In this document: piece by piece, positions 7,580-58,929 of the stretch
Position numbering within the stretch: position 1 is the stretch's first letter
Layout of the letters: each line of letters opens with the position of its first letter
Origin: Acidobacteriaceae bacterium
GTDB taxonomy: Bacteria; Acidobacteriota; Terriglobia; Terriglobales; Acidobacteriaceae
Assembly: GCA_003134995.1 (NCBI GenBank)
Contig: PLDC01000018.1
Location: forward strand, 124,001 to 188,000
Length of the DNA: 64,000 nt
Direction of reading: 5' to 3'
Made by a program: the position numbers and the translations under genes
The notes under the pieces: model-generated
Databases searched by the model: none
Told to the model about the DNA's origin: nothing
Seen by the model: the letters and a program-made list of their open reading frames with translations, nothing else

Positions 7580-10500
7580 TTAATTGGTGCGCGCGAACTG
7601 GTTCTGACGGTAACTCAGGTTGTCCACGTTCCGGAACATCGGAGTTCCGGGCGGCAGGTTCGACGGCAACGAGAACAACGGGTCGAACACATAATTACGG
7701 TTCGGCGGGTTGTAGACGGTGTTGCAGCACTTGAAAGTGCCAGTCGCGTAAGTCGCGTAGTAGAGGCTGACCAGAGAGCCTTTGTAATTCAACGTCTGCT
7801 GCGACGTCTGGCCGCCCCAATCCTCGAGGAAGCGGAGGAAGTTATGAATTCCACCGTCCATCCCGAAAGAAAACTCCGGATTCTGGGTCGTATTCAGGAA
7901 CGCGATATTCTTGCCGCCAGCAATCGCCACGCGATAGTGCGTGGTAACTGCAATTCTGTTATTCGGGACAGCGGGAACACTTTGGCCGCCCGGATTGATC
8001 GGGTTCACCAAACTTCCGGAATACAGCGCTCCGGTTTGTCCGGCATCCTGCCAGTTGTTTGAAAGCACCGTAACCGCGTCCGCAATCACGGCTGCAGCTG
8101 CGTGGTTAGGCTCTGCCCCAGGAGGAGTGTTCCACGTGGGATCATAAGTGGCATTGCCGGGAGTGCAGTCGGCAGTTCCAGCCGCGGTGCAGTTCGAATT
8201 GTAATTTCCCTGAATGTAGACCGGGTTTTCTGAGCCCACCGTAAAGCCGCCGCAAGCGGTTGGGCTCGCCACACTCTGCGCGCAATTGTTAGTCGCATTG
8301 CCCGGAGGCATCGTCGGCAAATTGCCCAGCGATCCATCCACCAGTTTTAGCGCGTGGCGCGCACCCGTCACACGGTTCGCGCGTCCCACCGTGAAAGTCT
8401 GAATCCGCGGAGAAAACGGGTTGTGCGGCAGCGTGACGTCTGTAGCTGTTGTAGTTAGGCTACCAAAAGCATCGCCCACTGTGACTGCGCCGTAGGTAGT
8501 GACCGTACCGTCGTTCCATTGTTCTGTGTCTTCCGGAGAAACGCCGTTGTAGTTGACCGGCTCCAGTGTTCCATTCGGAGCAAAGGGTGACCCGGCAGCG
8601 TAATTAACCACATCCTCGAAGCCGTAAGCGCCGAGCAAAATGTTGCTCGGATTGTGCGCGAGGTTGGGATCGTACTGCATGCCCCGCCGATCCGAGAAGT
8701 AAAGCACATATCCGTTCTGCGTGCTGAAGTTCACCGTGTTTCCGGTGGTGCCAGTCTGGCCGAGGAGCCAGCGCCTCAGGTTGCCCACATCCAATTCAAC
8801 GCAGTTGATGATGCCGTTGGCCGTACCTGTTCCAACAGGTTGGCTCACATCGTTATTCTCTCCCTCACGCGCGTCATAAAGGTTGATAGGGTACCAGTTG
8901 TATTGTGAATTTGCGCCGGAGTTCACTAGGGGCGTGGTGGTGATTGCTCCGTTGGCGACCGAGGTGAATGATATGGCATCCCCGGCGCTGATCGTTCCGT
9001 TGCCGTTGCGATCCGCGGTTTGCTGGAAGTACAGAATCGCGTTCTTGTGATCGGTCAGGAAGTTGCTTCCGGTTGTGCCGAGCGTGTTCGTGGCCTGCGC
9101 CGCGGCAGAGCCGGGTGCCATGGGCACCTGTAATCCTCGGGCAAAGCCCAGTTGCAGCCACTCCTTGGTGACGCCCGTCCACAAGCCAGTGCTGGAGTTC
9201 AGCACTTCGACCAGCAACCAGCCGTTGACGATCGGCCACTCGGCCTGAGTTGTATTGTGCGCGGCGGTAGTGCCTCCGGGCACCCACGGCGGCCAAATGA
9301 AATTGGTATCGCCATTCGTGCACGCGTGCCCGACAGAGCCGCCGCCTGTGGTTCCGCAAGCGCTTTCACCGAAGTAGTAGGTATTTCCGTTGACGAGGAT
9401 TCCGCTCTGCGCTCCACCCGTCGTCGCGAACGGTCCCGCCGTGTTTACGAACTCAGAGGCGGGAACCATGCTGGCTAATTCCACATCCTGAGTTGTGTCT
9501 CCATTCCATCCGGGCAGATGCAGATCGGCCTCTTTATCGCTGAGCAGGATGCGAATCTGAGCTTCGTTGGCTAAACGCGAACCGCCGAGCAAAGAAGTTG
9601 TGGATTCGCCCGGCGGCGGCCGTCGGATAATCTGAAAGGGAAACGTCGTTCCATTCACAAAGGGAAGCGTCAGATCGCTGGCGCCGGTTCCGTTGGGGCC
9701 ATTCGTGGTGCCCGGCGGAGTGCCGTTGCCATCGATGATGTAGCCGTTATATGGCGTACCGAGAGAAACGTTGTACCAGGGCGCGAACTGAGCTGAGGCG
9801 TGGCCGCCAGTGACGCTGCCATCGACCGAACCGAGACTTGTAGTAGCGATGTCAACGCAAGTAGCGCTGGGCGAGGCGGACGCGACGTTGCCCAACTGTG
9901 TCGCACAACCGCCGCTCGTGGTCGGAATCATGACCGTGCCGCCGTTATCGTTGCCCGCGGAAATTACTCCGTTATCCATCTGTTCGCGGATCACGTTGCC
10001 GAAGGCGCTGATCTTGTCGCCGAAAACCAGGTTGTAGCCATCCGCTACGCCTAAGTAGAGATCGCCATTCGTGTGCACGCGTCCGGCGAAGGCGAGGTTG
10101 GGACTGCGCCCGAAGAAACAATCTCCATCGCAAAACACACCGAACTGAAAGACCGGAATCAGCGCCACTTCAGCGGTGCGAGTCATGCTCACCGTTTCAG
10201 TGTTGCCCACAATGCGTTGCGCGGTGACGTTCATCGTCACCGGGATGATCTGCGCGTACAGGCCAGCGTCCGGTCCGGATTGGATTGGTCCCCACACAGG
10301 AGACAGCGGCGCAGTGCAAGGATTCGCCGCTCCCGGCGTGACTGGCGTTACGTTATAAGCTCCATCCGTACCGGTGAAGCTGATGGTCGGATCCCAGGTC
10401 GGAGGAGTGTTGCTCACGGCGCAAATTTGCGTGGCGGTCGGCGCCTGAATGTTCTGGAAAGTCGTCGCCAGGTCAGAGGTCATCTTTTCCATGGCGCCTT

Positions 10501-32766: not shown

Positions 32767-33567
32767 ATGGACGAGAAAAACGAGAATGCAGTTACGGGGC
32801 CTGACTACATTTGTGGTCGGGCGGATGAGGTCAAAAGCAACTTCAAAGGCGTCGGACAGGAGTGTCCGACCCACATGGGCAGTCCCAGGATCAAAAGCGA
32901 CGGACAGGAGTGTCCGACCCACACGAGCAACCCCAAGATCAAAAGCGACGGACCCTTCGGCGGCGCTCAGGGCAAGCAGGGGTGTTCGTCCCACACGAGC
33001 GAGGAGGAAGGGATCGACTTACAGGCGGTTGCCGATGAGAACCCAAAGCGGAAAGGAGAAATCATCGAGGCCGCGTTTCTGGCCAGGGTTTGCAAGCTCA
33101 GGATCCCGGTGTGCAAGCCGTGGGGAGACAGCGAGCGCTACGATTTTGTGGTGGATTGGGGCAAAGGATTCTGGAGCGTGCAGGTGAAAGGCGGGACGAG
33201 TCACAAGAGGTCGGGCTATAAAGTTGAATCGGGGCGCGACGGGAGGGTATTCACGAAGGACGACATGGATTTCGTGGTTGTGTATATCGTCCCGGAGGAT
33301 TTGTGGTACGTGGTGCCCGTCGAGATCGCGGAGGGGGCAAGTTCGTTGTGGTTCACTCCGCGATCGGCGCGGGCCCGGCTTGCAAAATACCGGGAGGCCT
33401 GGTGTTTGCTGGATTGTGGGTTGGAGGAGCGGGGGCTGGAGGATATTCCAGTGCGGTGCCGGAGCGAAGCGGTCAACGTGAGGTGCGCGGTTTGTCCGTT
33501 GCAGCAGGACGTGCCTTCACAGAAGCTCGCTTGTCCCGTAAAAATACGGCCGCGGCGATTGAAGTGA
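32767..33567 (+). CDS. PD-(D/E)XK endonuclease-like protein with repeat-derived N-terminus
   Basis: 266 aa from the ATG at 32767 (no clear ribosome-binding site). Residues about 35-80 are encoded by hairpin repeats and read as repeated KSDGQECPTH-type units. The nuclease-like core is about 95-215: KRKGEIIEAAFLARVCKLRI, then YDFVVD and FWSVQVKGG, fitting E...D...QxK active-site spacing of the PD-(D/E)XK superfamily. The YVVPVEIAEGASSLWF region is typical of the intron-associated PDDEXK group. No intron is visible. DNA target unknown; the repeats suggest repeat insertion into the 5' end. Confidence 0.72.
   Translation: MDEKNENAVTGPDYICGRADEVKSNFKGVGQECPTHMGSPRIKSDGQECPTHTSNPKIKSDGPFGGAQGKQGCSSHTSEEEGIDLQAVADENPKRKGEIIEAAFLARVCKLRIPVCKPWGDSERYDFVVDWGKGFWSVQVKGGTSHKRSGYKVESGRDGRVFTKDDMDFVVVYIVPEDLWYVVPVEIAEGASSLWFTPRSARARLAKYREAWCLLDCGLEERGLEDIPVRCRSEAVNVRCAVCPLQQDVPSQKLACPVKIRPRRLK
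32851..32920. repeat. Two tandem CGGACA-GGAG-TGTCCG hairpin repeats
   Basis: Stem-loops at 32851-32870 (8-bp stem gtcggaca/tgtccgac, loop ggag) and 32901-32916 (6-bp stem, same loop), each in the context tcaaaagc...cccaca. A degenerate third copy follows near 32945-32995. Related to the copy at 58.7 kb. Confidence 0.8.
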
Positions 33568-45061: not shown

Positions 45062-46111
45062 GTGAATGGAAAAATGACAGCAGCCGTCCTGTACGGCAAA
45101 GAAGACATAAAAATTGAGCGAGTGCCCATCCCTCGCGTCGAAAAAGGCGAAGTTCTGGTCAAAGTACAGGTGGCGCTCACCTGCGGCACCGATCTTAAGG
45201 TTTACCAGCGCGGCTATCACGCCCGCATGATCGTTCCTCCCGCGCTCTTCGGCCACGAACTTGCTGGAGTGATCGAGGAAGTCGGCGAAGGCGTCGTCAG
45301 CTTCAAGAAAGGCCAGCGCGTGGTAGCGCTTAATTCCGCGCCGTGCCAGATGTGTTTCTACTGCTCCAAGCATCAGGAAAATCTCTGCGAAGATCTGCTC
45401 TTCAACAACGGAGCCTATGCCGAATACATCCGCGTCCCGCGCCGCATCGTGGAAGCGAATATGCTCGTCATCCCGTCCGGCGTAAGTTTTGAAGACGCTG
45501 CCATGACCGAGCCTCTGGCCTGCGTGTTGCGCGGCCTGCACGAAACCGGAGTCGAAATCGGCGACACCGTGACCATCATCGGCGGCGGCCCCATCGGCCT
45601 GATGTTCGTTCAGGTAGCCCGCGCCATCGGCTGCAACGTCATCTCAGTGGTAAAGCGCGATGAACAGGTAGTAGCCGCAAAGCACATGGGCGCTCACGAA
45701 ATCGTGCAGACCACCAAAGTTCAAAATGTAGTCGAGGCCGTGCGCGCGCTCACTCCGCAAAAGCGCGGCTGCGATGTCGTGATCGAAGCCGTAGGCCGTC
45801 CCGAAGCATGGGAGTGGACGGTCGAGATGGTCCGCAAAGGCGGTACCGTAAATTTCTTCGGCGGATGCTCCAGCGGATCGAAAGTGCAGCTCGACACCAA
45901 TCGGCTGCACTATGGCGAGATCACGCTCAAGGCTACGTTCCATCACACGCCGGAAACAGTGCGCCGCGCCTTTGGCCTGATCGCGGCTAAGAAAATCCGT
46001 CCCACAGACTACATCACTGGCGAAGCGCCTCTTTCAAGTTTGCAAAAAGTGCTGCGCCACATGCTGAACCGCGGCGGCGACATCAAGACCGCAATCATTC
46101 CCGGCCACTGA
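45062..46111 (+). CDS. Zinc-dependent medium-chain alcohol dehydrogenase (second of pair)
   Basis: 349-aa MDR-family enzyme. GTG start with AAGGA 8 nt upstream (ATG four codons later is an alternative). Catalytic zinc region ALTCGTDLKVYQRGYHARM and FGHELAGVI; structural-zinc cysteines in CQMCFYCSKHQENLC; Rossmann motif GGGPIGLMFVQVARAIG. RKGGTVNFFGGCSSGSKVQLDTNRLHY resembles sorbitol/threonine-dehydrogenase-like proteins. It lies 46 nt after its paralogue. A hairpin repeat separates it from hpnC. Confidence 0.88.
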   Translation: MNGKMTAAVLYGKEDIKIERVPIPRVEKGEVLVKVQVALTCGTDLKVYQRGYHARMIVPPALFGHELAGVIEEVGEGVVSFKKGQRVVALNSAPCQMCFYCSKHQENLCEDLLFNNGAYAEYIRVPRRIVEANMLVIPSGVSFEDAAMTEPLACVLRGLHETGVEIGDTVTIIGGGPIGLMFVQVARAIGCNVISVVKRDEQVVAAKHMGAHEIVQTTKVQNVVEAVRALTPQKRGCDVVIEAVGRPEAWEWTVEMVRKGGTVNFFGGCSSGSKVQLDTNRLHYGEITLKATFHHTPETVRRAFGLIAAKKIRPTDYITGEAPLSSLQKVLRHMLNRGGDIKTAIIPGH

Positions 46112-46124
46112 TGTTTTTGGGTGG

Positions 46125-46186
46125 CGCAGCGCTTCAGCGCTGCCATTAAGAGGATTAATTCTCAGCCGGCTTTAGCCGCTGAGGTA
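46125..46186 (+). repeat. Paired-hairpin dispersed repeat, copy 1
   Basis: Hairpin 1: GCAGCGC-TTCA-GCGCTGC (46126-46143). Hairpin 2: CGGC-TTTA-GCCG (46167-46178), followed by CTGAGG. Same order and loops as the copy inside hpnE. Confidence 0.8.
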
Positions 46187-46231: not shown

Positions 46232-47227
46232 ATGACCCTAACCACCGCCACTACTGATTCCAGCGCCGCGCTCACCCCCGCCACAAACGGCTGGAGCCGC
46301 CTGCCCGCCGCCTACGCGATCCCCAACACCGCCCCCTCGCTCGAACAATCCCAAGAATACTGCCGTCAGCTCGCCCGCACCCACTACGAAAACTTTTCCG
46401 TAGCCACCTGGTTCCTACCCAAAAAACTCCGCCAGGATTTCCTCAACGTCTATGCCTACTGCCGCATCTCCGACGATCTCGGCGACGAAGTCGGAGACGC
46501 AGACGCATCTCTAACCCTGCTCGACGAATGGCAACAGCAGCTTGACGCCTGCTACGAAGGCAATCCGCGTCATCCAGTTTTTGTAGCTCTAAGAGAAACG
46601 GTAAGGAAGTTCAAAATCCCCAAGCACGAATTCTCCGATCTGCTGATCGCTTTCCGCCAGGACCAAACCGTAGCCCGCTTCGAAACCTTCAACGATGTGT
46701 TGGCCTATTGCCGCTATTCGGCGAATCCCGTAGGCCATCTCGTGCTCTATCTTTGTGGATATAGCGATGCCGAACGCCAGCAGCTTTCCGACTACACCTG
46801 CACTGCATTGCAATTGGCAAATTTCTGGCAGGACGTAACCATCGACTACGCCAAAGGCCGCATCTACCTTCCGCTCGAAGACCTGCGCCATTACTCGGTA
46901 ACCGAGGAAGACATCCAGCAGAACCGCAACGCACCGGCATTCTGCGAGATGATGAAGTTTGAAGTCGAACGCGCTCGCGAATGGTTCGACCACGGCCTTC
47001 CGCTGATCGGCAAAGTAGACAAGGAATTAGCGGTAGACCTGGAACTCTTCAGCCGCGGCGGTCAGGAAATATTAAACGCCATCGAACGCCAGAATTATGC
47101 GGTACTAGGTCGTCGCCCAGTCATCTCGAAGTCTCGAAAACTGGCGCTGGTAGCCCGAGCCGCGCTGGGCAAGCTGCGAGGAGCCGCATCCGGAAGCCCG
47201 AGGCGGGAAAGGGGACGCCGGCAATGA
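46232..47227 (+). CDS. hpnC: Hydroxysqualene synthase HpnC
   Basis: 331-aa squalene/phytoene synthase-fold enzyme. HpnC converts presqualene diphosphate to hydroxysqualene. Motifs are SLEQSQEYCRQLARTHYENFSVATWFLP, the first Asp-rich motif RISDDLGDEVGD (about 78-88), and FWQDVTIDYAKGRIYLP as the second. VGHLVLYLCGY is conserved. The stop overlaps the hpnD start (ATGA). The C-terminal 30 residues are basic and Gly/Arg-rich. Confidence 0.93.
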   Translation: MTLTTATTDSSAALTPATNGWSRLPAAYAIPNTAPSLEQSQEYCRQLARTHYENFSVATWFLPKKLRQDFLNVYAYCRISDDLGDEVGDADASLTLLDEWQQQLDACYEGNPRHPVFVALRETVRKFKIPKHEFSDLLIAFRQDQTVARFETFNDVLAYCRYSANPVGHLVLYLCGYSDAERQQLSDYTCTALQLANFWQDVTIDYAKGRIYLPLEDLRHYSVTEEDIQQNRNAPAFCEMMKFEVERAREWFDHGLPLIGKVDKELAVDLELFSRGGQEILNAIERQNYAVLGRRPVISKSRKLALVARAALGKLRGAASGSPRRERGRRQ

Positions 47228-48174: not shown

Positions 48175-48200
48175 CCAGCCCGAAGGGCGCCATGCGAAAG

Positions 48201-48220
48201 CCCGGCACGGCAGTGCCGGG
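48201..48220. repeat. GC-rich hairpin after hpnD
   Basis: Perfect 8-bp stem CCCGGCAC/GTGCCGGG with a GGCA loop, 26 nt after the hpnD stop. No T-run; likely another small dispersed hairpin rather than a terminator. Confidence 0.65.
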
Positions 48221-48818: not shown

Positions 48819-50357
48819 ATGCCAACGCCAAACCGACCCACCGTAGCCATAGCCGGAGGCGGCCTCGCCGGCCTGGCCGCAGCCTGCGCCCTCTCCGACA
48901 CCGGCTTCGACGTCACCCTATTCGAACGCCGCCCCTACTTAGGCGGACGCGCGTCCTCCTACGAACATCCCGGCACCGGCGAAGTAGTCGACAATTGCCA
49001 GCACGTGCTCTTCCGCGTATGCACCAACCTCGTCGAGTTCTACAAACGAATCGGAGTAGAGGACAAAATCCGCTGGTATGACGAAATGACGTTCATCGAG
49101 CCCGGAGGCCGCACCAGCGTGATGCGAGCCTCGCCGCTCCCAGCGCCGCTTCACACCGCGCCAAGTTTCCTGCGGTTTCCGTTTCTAAACGCAAAAGACA
49201 AGCTGGTAATTTCGCAAGCGATCGCGGCGCTAGCCCTAACGAAGCAACCAGACACCGGCCGTTCGTTCCAGGACTGGTGCCGCCAACACCACCAAACCGA
49301 AAACGCCATCGAACGTTTCTGGAAGCCGATCCTGGTAAGCGCTCTAAGTGAAGACCTCGACCTGATCTCGATTTCCTACGCAGCCCAGGTAGTGCGCGAA
49401 TCCATGAAGTCGCCCGAAGCCCGCCACATGGGTGTTCCAAGCATTCCACTGACCGACCTCTACAACCGCGCCGGAGACTACATCCGCGCCCGCAACGGCA
49501 AGATAAAGTTCCGTACCTCGCTCGAAAAGTTTTCCCCCGAGCCATCGCAAGTGAGAGTTCGAGTCGGAGACGCAGAAGAACTCTTCGACTATCTAGTCCT
49601 GGCACTCCCGTTCGAAAACCTGGAACGCGTCCTCCCGCAAACTCCAGAATCATCCGCACTGCGCGAAAAGCTAACCCACTTCGAATCCGCTCCAATAACC
49701 GGAATCCACCTCTGGTTCGACCGCCAAATCACCGACCTGGACCACGCTGTCCTACTAGACCGAACAATTCAATGGATGTTCCACAAGTCGCGCCTCTTGG
49801 AAAGAGATCGGCGGAACGAACACAACCGGGAAGGGAACGACTTCAATTCTGAGCCTGCGCTGAGCAAGCGAAGCGCGACGAGGAGTGCCGTAAACGATTC
49901 GTATCAGGGCACGGCTTCAGCCGTGCCGCAAGGCGGCAAAATCGCCGGGGCTTTAGCCCCTGAGGGCAGCTACATCGAGCTAGTAGTAAGCGCCTCAAAG
50001 AATCTAATCGACAAATCCCGTGCCGAAATCGTCGACCTGGCTCTAAAAGAAGTCCGCGAATTTTTCCCCGAAGCAAGAACAGCAAACTTAATAAAGTCAA
50101 CCGTAATCAAAGAAGTTCGCGCGACCTATTCTCCGCGCCCCGGCATCGATCCTTACCGGCCCTCGCAAATTACAGCGTGGCCCCGAGTCTTCCTCGCCGG
50201 CGATTGGACTGCCACCGACTGGCCCGCCACCATGGAAGGCGCGGTCCGCAGCGGCTATCTAGCCGCCGAAGCCCTAACCCGCGCCGCAGGGAAGAAAGGC
50301 TCCCACTTCCTCGCGCCCGATCTCCCAGCAGCAGGCCTGATGCGACTCTTCAGCTAG
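48819..50357 (+). CDS. hpnE: Squalene desaturase/dehydrosqualene reductase-type FAD enzyme HpnE with repeat-derived insertion
   Basis: 512-aa FAD-dependent amine-oxidase/desaturase-fold enzyme; HpnE reduces hydroxysqualene to squalene. The N-terminal FAD motif is VAIAGGGLAGLAAACAL, followed by FERRPYLGGRASSYEHPGTG. The C-terminal FAD site is FLAGDWTATDWPATMEGAVRSGYLAAEAL. Between KSRLLERD and YIELVVSAS there is an extra ~55-residue segment (about nt 49800-49968) encoded by hairpin repeats; relatives join these regions with only a few residues. The frame is kept, so the gene is probably functional. Confidence 0.92.
   Translation: MPTPNRPTVAIAGGGLAGLAAACALSDTGFDVTLFERRPYLGGRASSYEHPGTGEVVDNCQHVLFRVCTNLVEFYKRIGVEDKIRWYDEMTFIEPGGRTSVMRASPLPAPLHTAPSFLRFPFLNAKDKLVISQAIAALALTKQPDTGRSFQDWCRQHHQTENAIERFWKPILVSALSEDLDLISISYAAQVVRESMKSPEARHMGVPSIPLTDLYNRAGDYIRARNGKIKFRTSLEKFSPEPSQVRVRVGDAEELFDYLVLALPFENLERVLPQTPESSALREKLTHFESAPITGIHLWFDRQITDLDHAVLLDRTIQWMFHKSRLLERDRRNEHNREGNDFNSEPALSKRSATRSAVNDSYQGTASAVPQGGKIAGALAPEGSYIELVVSASKNLIDKSRAEIVDLALKEVREFFPEARTANLIKSTVIKEVRATYSPRPGIDPYRPSQITAWPRVFLAGDWTATDWPATMEGAVRSGYLAAEALTRAAGKKGSHFLAPDLPAAGLMRLFS
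49800..49968 (+). repeat. Paired-hairpin dispersed repeat, copy 2, inserted in hpnE
   Basis: Hairpin 1: GGCACGGC-TTCA-GCCGTGCC (49908-49927). Hairpin 2: GGGGC-TTTA-GCCCC (49947-49960), followed by TGAGG. The preceding ~100 bases also look repeat-like. The insert keeps the hpnE frame. Confidence 0.8.
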
Positions 50358-55508: not shown

Positions 55509-55540
55509 GAAAAGTTTAGCCCGTCAGTTATAAGAATTAT

Positions 55541-55628
55541 TCACCACAGAGACACAGAGGCACAGAGAAGGCAAAGAAAAGAACAAGACAATAAAGGTTT
55601 TCTCTGAGTCTCTGTGCCTCTGTGGTGA
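55541..55628. repeat. Imperfect inverted repeat of CACAGAG units
   Basis: Arms at 55541-55569 and 55600-55628, about 29 bp with a few mismatches, built from CACAGAG/CTCTGTG units. The spacer is A-rich. It lies between hpnJ and the EamA genes. Highly similar CACAGAGRCACAGAG sequences are familiar as dispersed repeats in several bacterial phyla (recollection, not checked). Confidence 0.75.
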
Positions 55629-55642
55629 TTTGATCTTCGTTC

Positions 55643-57179: not shown

Positions 57180-58499
57180 TTATTTCGTCCCTAGCGCCCA
57201 ACTTTCGAGGTTGCCGGTAGCGCGAAGCAACGTTACCTGGGAGCGTTCTAGTTCGAAAGTTACGTCCTGCAGGGTGATGAGGCGTTCGCTGGCTTGGGCT
57301 TGGGCGTTGTCCAGATCATGGAGGTTGGCGGTGGAGGAATCCATGCGGGTGCGAACTGCTTCTACGTTTTTCTGGGCTAGTTCATATTCGAGTTCGGCTA
57401 CGTCGCGGGCGGCTTGCATCTGGGTTACGGAGCGCTGCAGGCGCAGCGTTTCTTCGGAGGCCTGGTCGCGCGCGGCTTCGGCCTGCTTGGTGGCTTTGCG
57501 CGCTTCCGACTCGGCTTCCTGGACTCGGGCGTGCTGGGCGTAGTTCAGGAAAGGAAAGTGGATCGCCAGACCGACGGTGCCGTTGTTGATCTGAAAGCTG
57601 TGTGGGGCATAGAAGCGCTGATAGTCGTTAATAGAATTGTCGAACACGGCATACTGGCCGGCAAAATCTACGCTAGGCCACAAACTTCGGTGTTCTCCCT
57701 TTACCTTCAAGTATTGTGCGCGCGCGTGTTCTACGGCTGCCTGTACTGCTGGATTTGCATCTGCGGCACTAACGGCGAATCCCTCAGTCGCGTCCTCTGA
57801 TTTGACTACGGGCAGATCGGGTAGCGAATCGGGATCGATTTCGAAGGAGGCAGCGGACAGGCCCGTCAGCTTGGAGAGATGTTCGCGGAGAACGTCGGCT
57901 GCGCCCGCGGCTTCGGAGTGACGTAAACGGATTCGGGCGATCGAGAGGCGGGCTTTGGTGTTGTCGACTTCGCTGTCGATCCCTTCTTTCACGCGCTGGG
58001 TTACGGCTGCTTCCATCTGCTCGGCTGCGGATTGTGCTTCGCGGAGGCGGCTTAGACGAAGTTCCCATTTCGCCAATTCGGCGTAGCTCAAAACCGTGTC
58101 CTGGATGACTTGATTGCGCTGGTCTTTAATTTTCAGGTTGCTGACGGCGACGTCGGATTGGGCAGCACGAATGAAGTCCTTCAAGGCGGGATTAATTAGC
58201 GCTGATTGCGCGTTCACGTTGAACAGCGATGGAGCAGCGCCTTCGAGGCTTAGCGGGAAACCATCGGACCAGCCGATTCCAGCTCCCGCGGTGAGTTGTG
58301 GGATGTAGCTGTTGCGGAGTTCGCGGTAGCTGGCGGAGGCGTGCTGTTGGTCGGCGGTAGCGATGCTGATGCCGGTGGCGTGGTTCAGCGCGAGTTCGAC
58401 TGCGCGATGGAGGGTGATGGGCTCCGCGAGAAGGGAAGTGGGCAGCAGAAGCAGCGCCAATAAGAATTTATGAATGCGCACGCCGGACTTTGTTTTCAT
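57180..58499 (-). CDS. TolC-family outer-membrane protein
   Basis: 439-aa outer-membrane efflux protein. The start at 58499 follows AAGGTGAAAAGA; the signal peptide ends SLLAEP. Two OEP units of long helices occur: LHRAVELALNHATGISIATADQQ and QVIQDTVLSYAELAKWELRLSRLREAQ in the first, ARKATKQAEAARDQASEETLRLQRSVTQ in the second. It lacks a lipobox, unlike the OMF at 6 kb. No pump genes are adjacent, so it may serve a distant exporter. Single gene. Confidence 0.88.
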   Translation of the reverse strand: MKTKSGVRIHKFLLALLLLPTSLLAEPITLHRAVELALNHATGISIATADQQHASASYRELRNSYIPQLTAGAGIGWSDGFPLSLEGAAPSLFNVNAQSALINPALKDFIRAAQSDVAVSNLKIKDQRNQVIQDTVLSYAELAKWELRLSRLREAQSAAEQMEAAVTQRVKEGIDSEVDNTKARLSIARIRLRHSEAAGAADVLREHLSKLTGLSAASFEIDPDSLPDLPVVKSEDATEGFAVSAADANPAVQAAVEHARAQYLKVKGEHRSLWPSVDFAGQYAVFDNSINDYQRFYAPHSFQINNGTVGLAIHFPFLNYAQHARVQEAESEARKATKQAEAARDQASEETLRLQRSVTQMQAARDVAELEYELAQKNVEAVRTRMDSSTANLHDLDNAQAQASERLITLQDVTFELERSQVTLLRATGNLESWALGTK

Positions 58500-58604
58500 T
58501 CTTTTCACCTTTGTGACATCTGGAAAGATTCTACGGAGAATCTGATGCGAGAGAAATGATAAGGATGGGTCGGAGAGGAGTTTCAAGGGTTGGGTAGCGG
58601 AGGG

Positions 58605-58672
58605 GCCGTTAACTCAGCGGCTGAAGCCGGGCTCTCGTTGAGGGCGAATTGCGGCACGGCTGAAGCCGTGCC
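58605..58672 (-). repeat. Paired-hairpin dispersed repeat, copy 3 (reverse orientation)
   Basis: Read on the minus strand: hairpin 1 GGCACGGC-TTCA-GCCGTGCC, a spacer of about 25 nt, then hairpin 2 CGGC-TTCA-GCCG followed by CTGAG. Same order as copies at 46.1 and 49.9 kb. Confidence 0.8.
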
Positions 58673-58707
58673 CTTCCCGGTCAACATCAAAGTCAAAGTC
58701 AAAAGCA

Positions 58708-58725: not shown

Positions 58726-58929
58726 TCCACACTGGCAAAGGCAAACAGCAGGTTCCTCACCGGGCTTTCAGCCCGATTCGGAATGACATTGCTTTGGTGG
58801 ATGGTCTTATCTCACGGTGGCTTTCACGGCGGCTGAAGTCGGCGTGCTGTTGCTTGCCTGACGGAACCTGATCATCTTCCGGTGTGAGCAAGGCGCGGTA
58901 CAATCTTCAGCAAGCGTAAAGGAGGCCGC

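What the first reader, a model, noticed from the sequence alone, without database searches (positions are those of the whole stretch)
46125..46186. Paired-hairpin repeat family with covarying stems
Copies at 46.1 kb, 49.9 kb and 58.6 kb (reverse) share hairpin order, the TTCA loop of hairpin 1, the TTTA or TTCA loop of hairpin 2 and a trailing CTGAGG. Stems differ in sequence (GCAGCGC against GGCACGGC; CGGC against GGGGC) but always pair. This points to a structured dispersed element of unknown role, comparable to REP/BIME elements.
Basis: seen in the sequence. Interest (0 to 1): 0.65.

Follow-up and report, generated by a model that had tools for sequence, protein, structure and literature searches.

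The report
Transposase-paired double-hairpin repeats in acidobacteria
The three paired hairpins are copies of about 70-base mobile DNA elements that occur a hundred or more times in this soil acidobacterium, come in at least five kinds that each track their own small transposase (RAYT), and sometimes land inside genes without breaking the reading frame.

Summary
Copies lie at 46117-46186 (+), 49900-49967 (+) and 58610-58680 (-). They are three subtypes (C, A1, A2) of one roughly 68-70 nt two-hairpin element, not three drifted copies. A covariance model finds 145 matches at E<=1 in this genome. In the genus, all 37 genomes searched carry 12 to >=82 copies; the sister family is nearly empty. Stems covary.

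The element belongs to RAYT transposases (NF047646). RAYT genes of this clade are bracketed by inverted, complete elements with hairpin 1 outward. Foot plus hairpin-1 sequence tracks RAYT phylogeny (5 changes for 6 states; Mantel r 0.73); hairpin 2 does not. The 49.9 kb copy sits in frame inside a squalene-pathway oxidoreductase gene. The same loop is filled by different elements, or empty, in related species; a methyltransferase gene shows the same pattern.

A two-hairpin unit with five coexisting transposase-matched subtypes is an unusual variant; acidobacterial TIRYT repeats described in 2013 are probably relatives. Side result: Rfam's Acido-Lenti-1 'sRNA' flanks another Y1 transposase.

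The parts
46117..46186 (+). Two-hairpin element, subtype C (foot GGGTGG). Hairpin 1 at 46126-46143, hairpin 2 at 46167-46178. Starts 6 nt after the stop codon of the zinc alcohol dehydrogenase gene (45062-46111), before the squalene/phytoene synthase gene (46232-47227).
   Evidence: R1 65.6 bits.
49900..49967 (+). Two-hairpin element, subtype A1 (foot GTATCAG). Hairpin 1 at 49908-49927, hairpin 2 at 49947-49960. Lies in frame inside ORF 48819-50357.
   Evidence: R1 69.0 bits.
58610..58680 (-). Two-hairpin element, subtype A2 (foot GGGAAG). Hairpin 1 at 58653-58672, hairpin 2 at 58618-58629. Upstream of an outer-membrane efflux protein gene (57180-58586, -).
   Evidence: R1 68.8 bits.
48819..50357 (+). 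Host gene: flavin amine oxidoreductase (HpnE-like by context with two squalene/phytoene synthases). Residues about 329-379 are an insertion that many related species lack or fill with other elements.
   Evidence: PF01593 163 bits; split alignments in relatives; inserts read out.
49825..49845 (+). Truncated remnant of an A2 element (ACCGGGAAGGGAACGACTTCA: foot, 5' arm and loop), an earlier insert in the same loop of the same gene.
   Evidence: 90% match to 58661-58681 (I6); read.

Best explanation
Each copy is a non-autonomous mobile DNA element of about 68-70 nt: a 4-9 nt foot, a strong hairpin (7-8 bp, TTYA-type loop), a loosely conserved spacer of about 19-23 nt, a weaker hairpin and a CTGAGG-like tail. 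It is read as single-stranded DNA by a RAYT (HUH-Y1 transposase) that recognises the foot plus hairpin 1; the RAYT cuts and rejoins it, so copies spread to intergenic sites and occasionally into permissive loops of genes, where only insertions that keep the frame open survive. Five or more subtypes coexist, each evolving with its own RAYT lineage; the window holds one each of subtypes C, A1 and A2. In this genome only the B RAYT looks intact, the C RAYT is degenerate, and no A1/A2/A3 RAYT was found, so the window's three copies are probably relics. Shown: dispersed copies, structure, RAYT bracketing, subtype-RAYT matching, in-frame inserts with empty orthologues. Inferred: ssDNA cutting, recognition by foot plus hairpin 1, movement in trans. 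Not shown: movement, exact cut sites, any role for the host.
For: Copies: 145 matches at E<=1 in the genome; all 37 genus genomes have 12 to >=82; the sister family has 0 in 13 of 14 genomes. RAYT: NF047646 113.7 bits, HxH and Tyr invariant in 7 aligned RAYTs. Bracketing: 101 matches in 97 kb around 30 RAYT loci; 215 matches in 255 kb around 80 RAYT loci fetched by protein only, against about 0.02-0.03 per kb genome-wide. Among the best 150 of those matches, 47 of 80 loci have an outward-facing inverted pair and 65 have at least one element within 160 bp; the other 15 have weaker or differently placed matches. The downstream element overlaps the RAYT 3' end, so many of these RAYTs end in ...PQGLKP, encoded by hairpin 2. 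Specificity: on a RAYT tree without the element-encoded end, 6 subtype labels need 5 changes, the minimum, against >=12 in 500 shuffles. RAYT distance against foot+hairpin 1 Mantel r 0.726 (999 permutations, highest 0.174); hairpin 2 r 0.153 (highest 0.194). Genomes with a B RAYT hold more B copies (median 39 against 6, Mann-Whitney p 0.0003, phylogeny not corrected). Sharp ends: conservation starts about 8 nt before hairpin 1 and stops after the tail. Two B copies on different contigs share 90% of the spacer, so hairpins and spacer probably move as one unit. Inserts: two genes have a loop filled by different subtypes in different species.
Against: No transposition event between near-identical genomes was seen: relatives are separate species, so empty sites are known to the codon region, not the base. 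No cut site is defined, and only subtype C has the classical GTGG/GTAG foot right before the stem. Spacers are poorly conserved (31-54% identity within subtypes), so old or assembled-in-place copies cannot be excluded for A subtypes. Two genomes with no Y1 gene found still hold 19-24 copies, though both assemblies are incomplete.
Confidence: 0.87

Rival explanations
1. A structured RNA (trans-acting sRNA or cis-regulatory mRNA element) in many copies; the covariation reflects RNA function.
For: Covarying stems; two of the window copies abut gene ends or starts.
Against: No Rfam family matches the three copies even at E<=5. Copies bracket transposase genes, subtype tracks the transposase rather than host genes, and copies occur inside coding loops in both orientations.
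Confidence: 0.06
2. Classical BIME/REPIN: the mobile unit is an inverted pair of elements (about 140 nt), and the single elements in the window are decayed halves.
For: In G001, 13 type-B + then - pairs with start distances 104-136 against one - then + pair; the RAYT gene sits between such a pair.
Against: Most copies in this genome stand alone: 5 adjacent pairs among the 100 strongest, only 2 of them + then -. The complete two-hairpin unit is what recurs in the protein inserts.
Confidence: 0.25
3. Intrinsic transcription terminators that look alike because of composition.
For: Strong GC hairpins, one 6 nt after a stop codon.
Against: No T-run follows either hairpin in the three copies; the sequence is far too conserved between unrelated loci, and one copy is inside a gene.
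Confidence: 0.02
4. The RAYT and its elements are domesticated, kept for a host function such as chromosome maintenance, and no longer spread.
For: RAYT literature calls these domesticated transposases (PMC8266576); spread across the genus and within-subtype divergence fit slow turnover.
Against: Subtype content varies strongly between species, and different inserts occupy the same loop in different species.
Confidence: 0.3

Closest known systems
REP/RAYT systems (REPtrons; TnpA-REP of E. coli, Pseudomonas, Stenotrophomonas)
   Same: HUH-Y1 RAYT flanked by hairpin repeats that occur in many, mostly intergenic copies; repeat and RAYT coevolve; short foot 5' of the hairpin.
   Different: Unit has two dissimilar hairpins in direct order with a spacer of about 20 nt; only subtype C has GTGG next to the stem; five or more subtypes coexist in one genus.
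TIRYT/TIRtron of Acidobacteria (Di Nocera 2013, PMC3733652)
   Same: RAYT-like genes in Acidobacteria flanked by inverted, partly double-palindromic repeats, one a dispersed family in Koribacter versatilis.
   Different: That paper gives few examples without subtype-transposase matching or coding inserts for them. Whether its acidobacterial group is this RAYT clade could not be tested here.
BIME/REPIN doublets
   Same: Type B forms + then - doublets 104-136 bp apart in G001.
   Different: Most copies here are single two-hairpin units.
Rickettsia palindromic elements and intragenic REPs (PMC3733652)
   Same: Palindromic repeats inserted in frame in protein genes, sometimes at the same site with different elements.
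   Different: Different sequences; here the matching transposase lineages are identified.
IS200/IS605 ends (IS608)
   Same: Hairpin with a 5' foot and a second hairpin followed by a tail resembles left end plus right end.
   Different: No transposase inside the unit; cut sites unknown; the resemblance is mechanistic inference only.

Membership tests
REP/RAYT system | A RAYT of the NF047646/PF01797 kind with HUH and Y motifs | tested here: met
   113.7 bits against cut-off 80; motifs in alignment A6.
REP/RAYT system | Repeats flank the RAYT gene on both sides | tested here: met
REP/RAYT system | GTAG or GTGG 0-2 nt 5' of a stem of 7-20 bp with a loop of 2-5 nt | tested here: inconclusive
   Met by subtype C (foot GTGG in 21 of 23). 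Not met by B/A2 (GAAG), A3 (AAAG), A1 (TCAG).
REP/RAYT system | Many copies per genome, mostly extragenic | tested here: met
   145 matches; of 54 matches sampled, one passed an internal-gene test and the window's 49.9 kb copy is a second.
REP/RAYT system | Repeat type coevolves with RAYT | tested here: met
REP/RAYT system | RAYT binds and cleaves the single-stranded repeat | not testable with these tools
   Needs biochemistry.
BIME/REPIN | Inverted REP pair as the repeating unit | tested here: inconclusive
   Common for type B in G001, rare in the window's genome.
TIRYT/TIRtron (acidobacterial group) | Terminal inverted repeats flank the gene | tested here: met
   Inverted complete elements.
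TIRYT/TIRtron (acidobacterial group) | Same protein group as Koribacter ORF 1552 | not tested
   The paper's sequences were not at hand.
Rfam structured RNA | Match to a known family | tested here: not met
   No match at the three copies.
Intrinsic terminator | T-run after the hairpin | tested here: not met
   Sequences.

The most novel reading that the evidence does not exclude
The single two-hairpin unit is a self-sufficient minimal transposon: hairpin 1 with its foot works as the left end and hairpin 2 with its tail as the right end, moved as about 70 nt of single-stranded DNA by RAYTs whose recognition has diversified into five or more orthogonal foot/hairpin codes in one bacterial genus.
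Probability: 0.3. Interest if true: 0.7.

Novelty: new variant of a known kind. Interest (0 to 1): 0.52.

Why it matters
How RAYTs choose and spread REP sequences is still poorly understood. Here one genus offers at least five transposase-repeat pairs side by side, with the RAYT-matched variation concentrated in the foot and first hairpin, which makes the recognition code directly testable by swaps. The in-frame inserts at the same protein loop show small DNA repeats repeatedly feeding new peptide segments into conserved enzymes. The link between Acido-Lenti-1 and a Y1 transposase suggests that a listed small-RNA family is a transposase-associated DNA repeat.

Tried and rejected
Rfam at gathering and permissive thresholds: nothing at the three copies; miRNA models at 55.5 kb are below cut-off and due to a long hairpin. 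sRNA and terminator readings rejected (see rivals). Simple guide rule (foot AG pairs with CT after hairpin 2): subtypes A1-A3 have CT there but so does C with foot GTGG, so no rule could be claimed. Codon-score test for internal copies missed the 49.9 kb copy because its neighbourhood is itself inserted sequence. The AlphaFold model of the host enzyme was weak (mean pLDDT 60); residues 336-384 come out without secondary structure at pLDDT about 25-45, consistent with a loop but no more. Exact empty sites could not be fixed because relatives are separate species.

Full report
WHAT IS THERE. Each is a foot, a 7-8 bp hairpin with loop TTCA, a spacer of 19-23 nt, a 4-5 bp hairpin with loop TTTA or TTCA, and a tail CTGAGG (CTGAGT in the 58.6 kb copy). 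A covariance model R1 (22 sequences) gives 145 matches at E<=1 in the 5.62 Mb genome, a lower bound since 150 candidates were scored. The model's sequences were chosen partly by having hairpins, so the cleaner covariation evidence is from loci fetched by transposase protein alone: 12 of 12 pairs with double changes, 96.1% of cells paired, score 0.496 against 0.123 shuffled; that alignment is still fitted to the model.

THE TRANSPOSASE. The genome has eight PF01797 genes. Two belong to one RAYT clade: C16:9563-10024, intact, and C29:330494-330919, whose HUH motif reads DHFY. The first matches NF047646 REP-associated tyrosine transposase. This clade was found in 28 of 45 genus genomes; in most of the 30 loci fetched, complete two-hairpin elements lie upstream in + and downstream in - orientation, hairpin 1 outward, the downstream one often overlapping the RAYT 3' end by about 19-37 nt, so that the protein often ends in PQGLKP encoded by hairpin 2. 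A scan of GTDB genomes with the RAYT alignment kept 80 loci, all titled as Acidobacteria or subgroups. They hold 215 matches in 255 kb. Using the best 150, 47 of 80 have the outward inverted pair and 65 have at least one element within 160 bp; the other 15 have weaker or differently placed matches. Control loci around two other genes give 24 matches in 206 kb, mostly at the insertion loops for which they were chosen.

SUBTYPES. Foot and hairpin-1 stem define types B (GTGGAAGA-GCGGCGC), A1 (GTATCAG-GGCACGGC), A2 (GGGAAG-GGCACGAC), A2b (-GGCACGAG), A3 (TTGAAAG-GGCGCGSC) and C (GGGTGG-CGCAGCGC). On a RAYT tree with the element-encoded end removed, six labels need five changes, the minimum; 500 shuffles needed at least 12. 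Across 63 loci, RAYT distance correlates with foot+hairpin 1 (Mantel r 0.726) and not with hairpin 2 (0.153; both against 999 permutations). Up and down elements of one locus differ by 8% in foot+hairpin 1, those of different loci by 33%. So the transposase most likely reads the foot and first hairpin (inference; in known RAYTs both matter, PMC8266576). The window's copies are C, A1 and A2. No A1, A2 or A3 RAYT was found in this genome at E<=1e-20, so these copies are probably orphans; B copies, with an intact RAYT, are the most uniform large group (core identity 0.91 in 17). Genomes with a B RAYT hold more B copies (median 39 against 6, p 0.0003, not corrected for phylogeny).

THE UNIT. Conservation begins about 8 nt before hairpin 1 and ends after the tail. 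Two B copies on different contigs share 90% of the spacer, so the unit probably includes both hairpins; A-type spacers are only slightly more alike than shuffled ones. Most copies in this genome are single; in G001 type B also forms + then - pairs 104-136 bp apart, which look like the RAYT locus without the RAYT.

INSIDE GENES. The 49.9 kb copy is in frame in a PF01593 enzyme next to two squalene/phytoene synthase genes. Between HKSRLL and GSYIELV, about half of the relatives have only a short linker and others carry A2, A3 or other repeats, or nested ones; the window's gene holds a truncated A2 copy and the A1 copy. A PF02636 methyltransferase shows the same at residues about 142-175, with A2, C, another repeat family, and Acido-Lenti-1 copies at places falling in that gap in G001 and G002. 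Thus different elements entered the same permissive loops; whether by site preference or by survival cannot be told.

KNOWN CONTEXT. RAYTs and REPs are well known; Di Nocera 2013 (PMC3733652) described acidobacterial TIRYT genes with double-palindromic flanking repeats, and intragenic REPs in other phyla. This is therefore a new variant of a known kind: a two-hairpin unit, several RAYT-matched subtypes in a genus, and repeated coding insertion.

Noticed in passing
window 48177-48220 (-); L098, L101, L106, L108, L010: Rfam Acido-Lenti-1 (RF01687, listed as sRNA) flanks Y1 genes; in the one read in full (L010) the Tyr motif is Y...Q..HH as in subclass 1.2, and several loci have inverted copies on both sides. 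Genomes with strong Y1 genes of that kind have 17-66 copies; G005, G006 and G008 have 0-3. It is probably a transposase-associated repeat rather than an sRNA.
   Followed up: partly
L039, L040, L042, L065, L182, L185: Another repeat family (GCCGCGGAGCGGCG..AATGCAGCCCACGGCGCAAGCCGTGGG) occupies the same two protein loops in other species.
   Followed up: no
L035, L082, L087, L092, L095, L096 around the element: Type B copies often sit inside a longer imperfect inverted repeat (GCGGAAAAACTCACAAACGCATGC ... GCGCAAAGAGTTTTCCGC); it may be an extended form or an older target repeat.
   Followed up: no
window about 58745-58790 and L025 about 9150-9190: Dispersed repeat GGTTCCTCNCCGGGCTTTCAGCCCGATTCGGAATGACA, a different hairpin family.
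   Followed up: no
window 55532-55637: Long inverted repeat (38 nt arms, 82% complementary) of CACAGAG-like units; eukaryotic miRNA models hit it below cut-off by chance.
   Followed up: no
window 32843-32953: 48 bp tandem repeat, 2.3 copies, containing the palindrome GGACAGGAGTGTCC.
   Followed up: no
genome-wide sample, L017-L036: Dispersed GCGAGAAATGGGGCACC / GCGAGAAGTGGGG repeats; one such copy also lies in the HpnE-like loop of L060.
   Followed up: no
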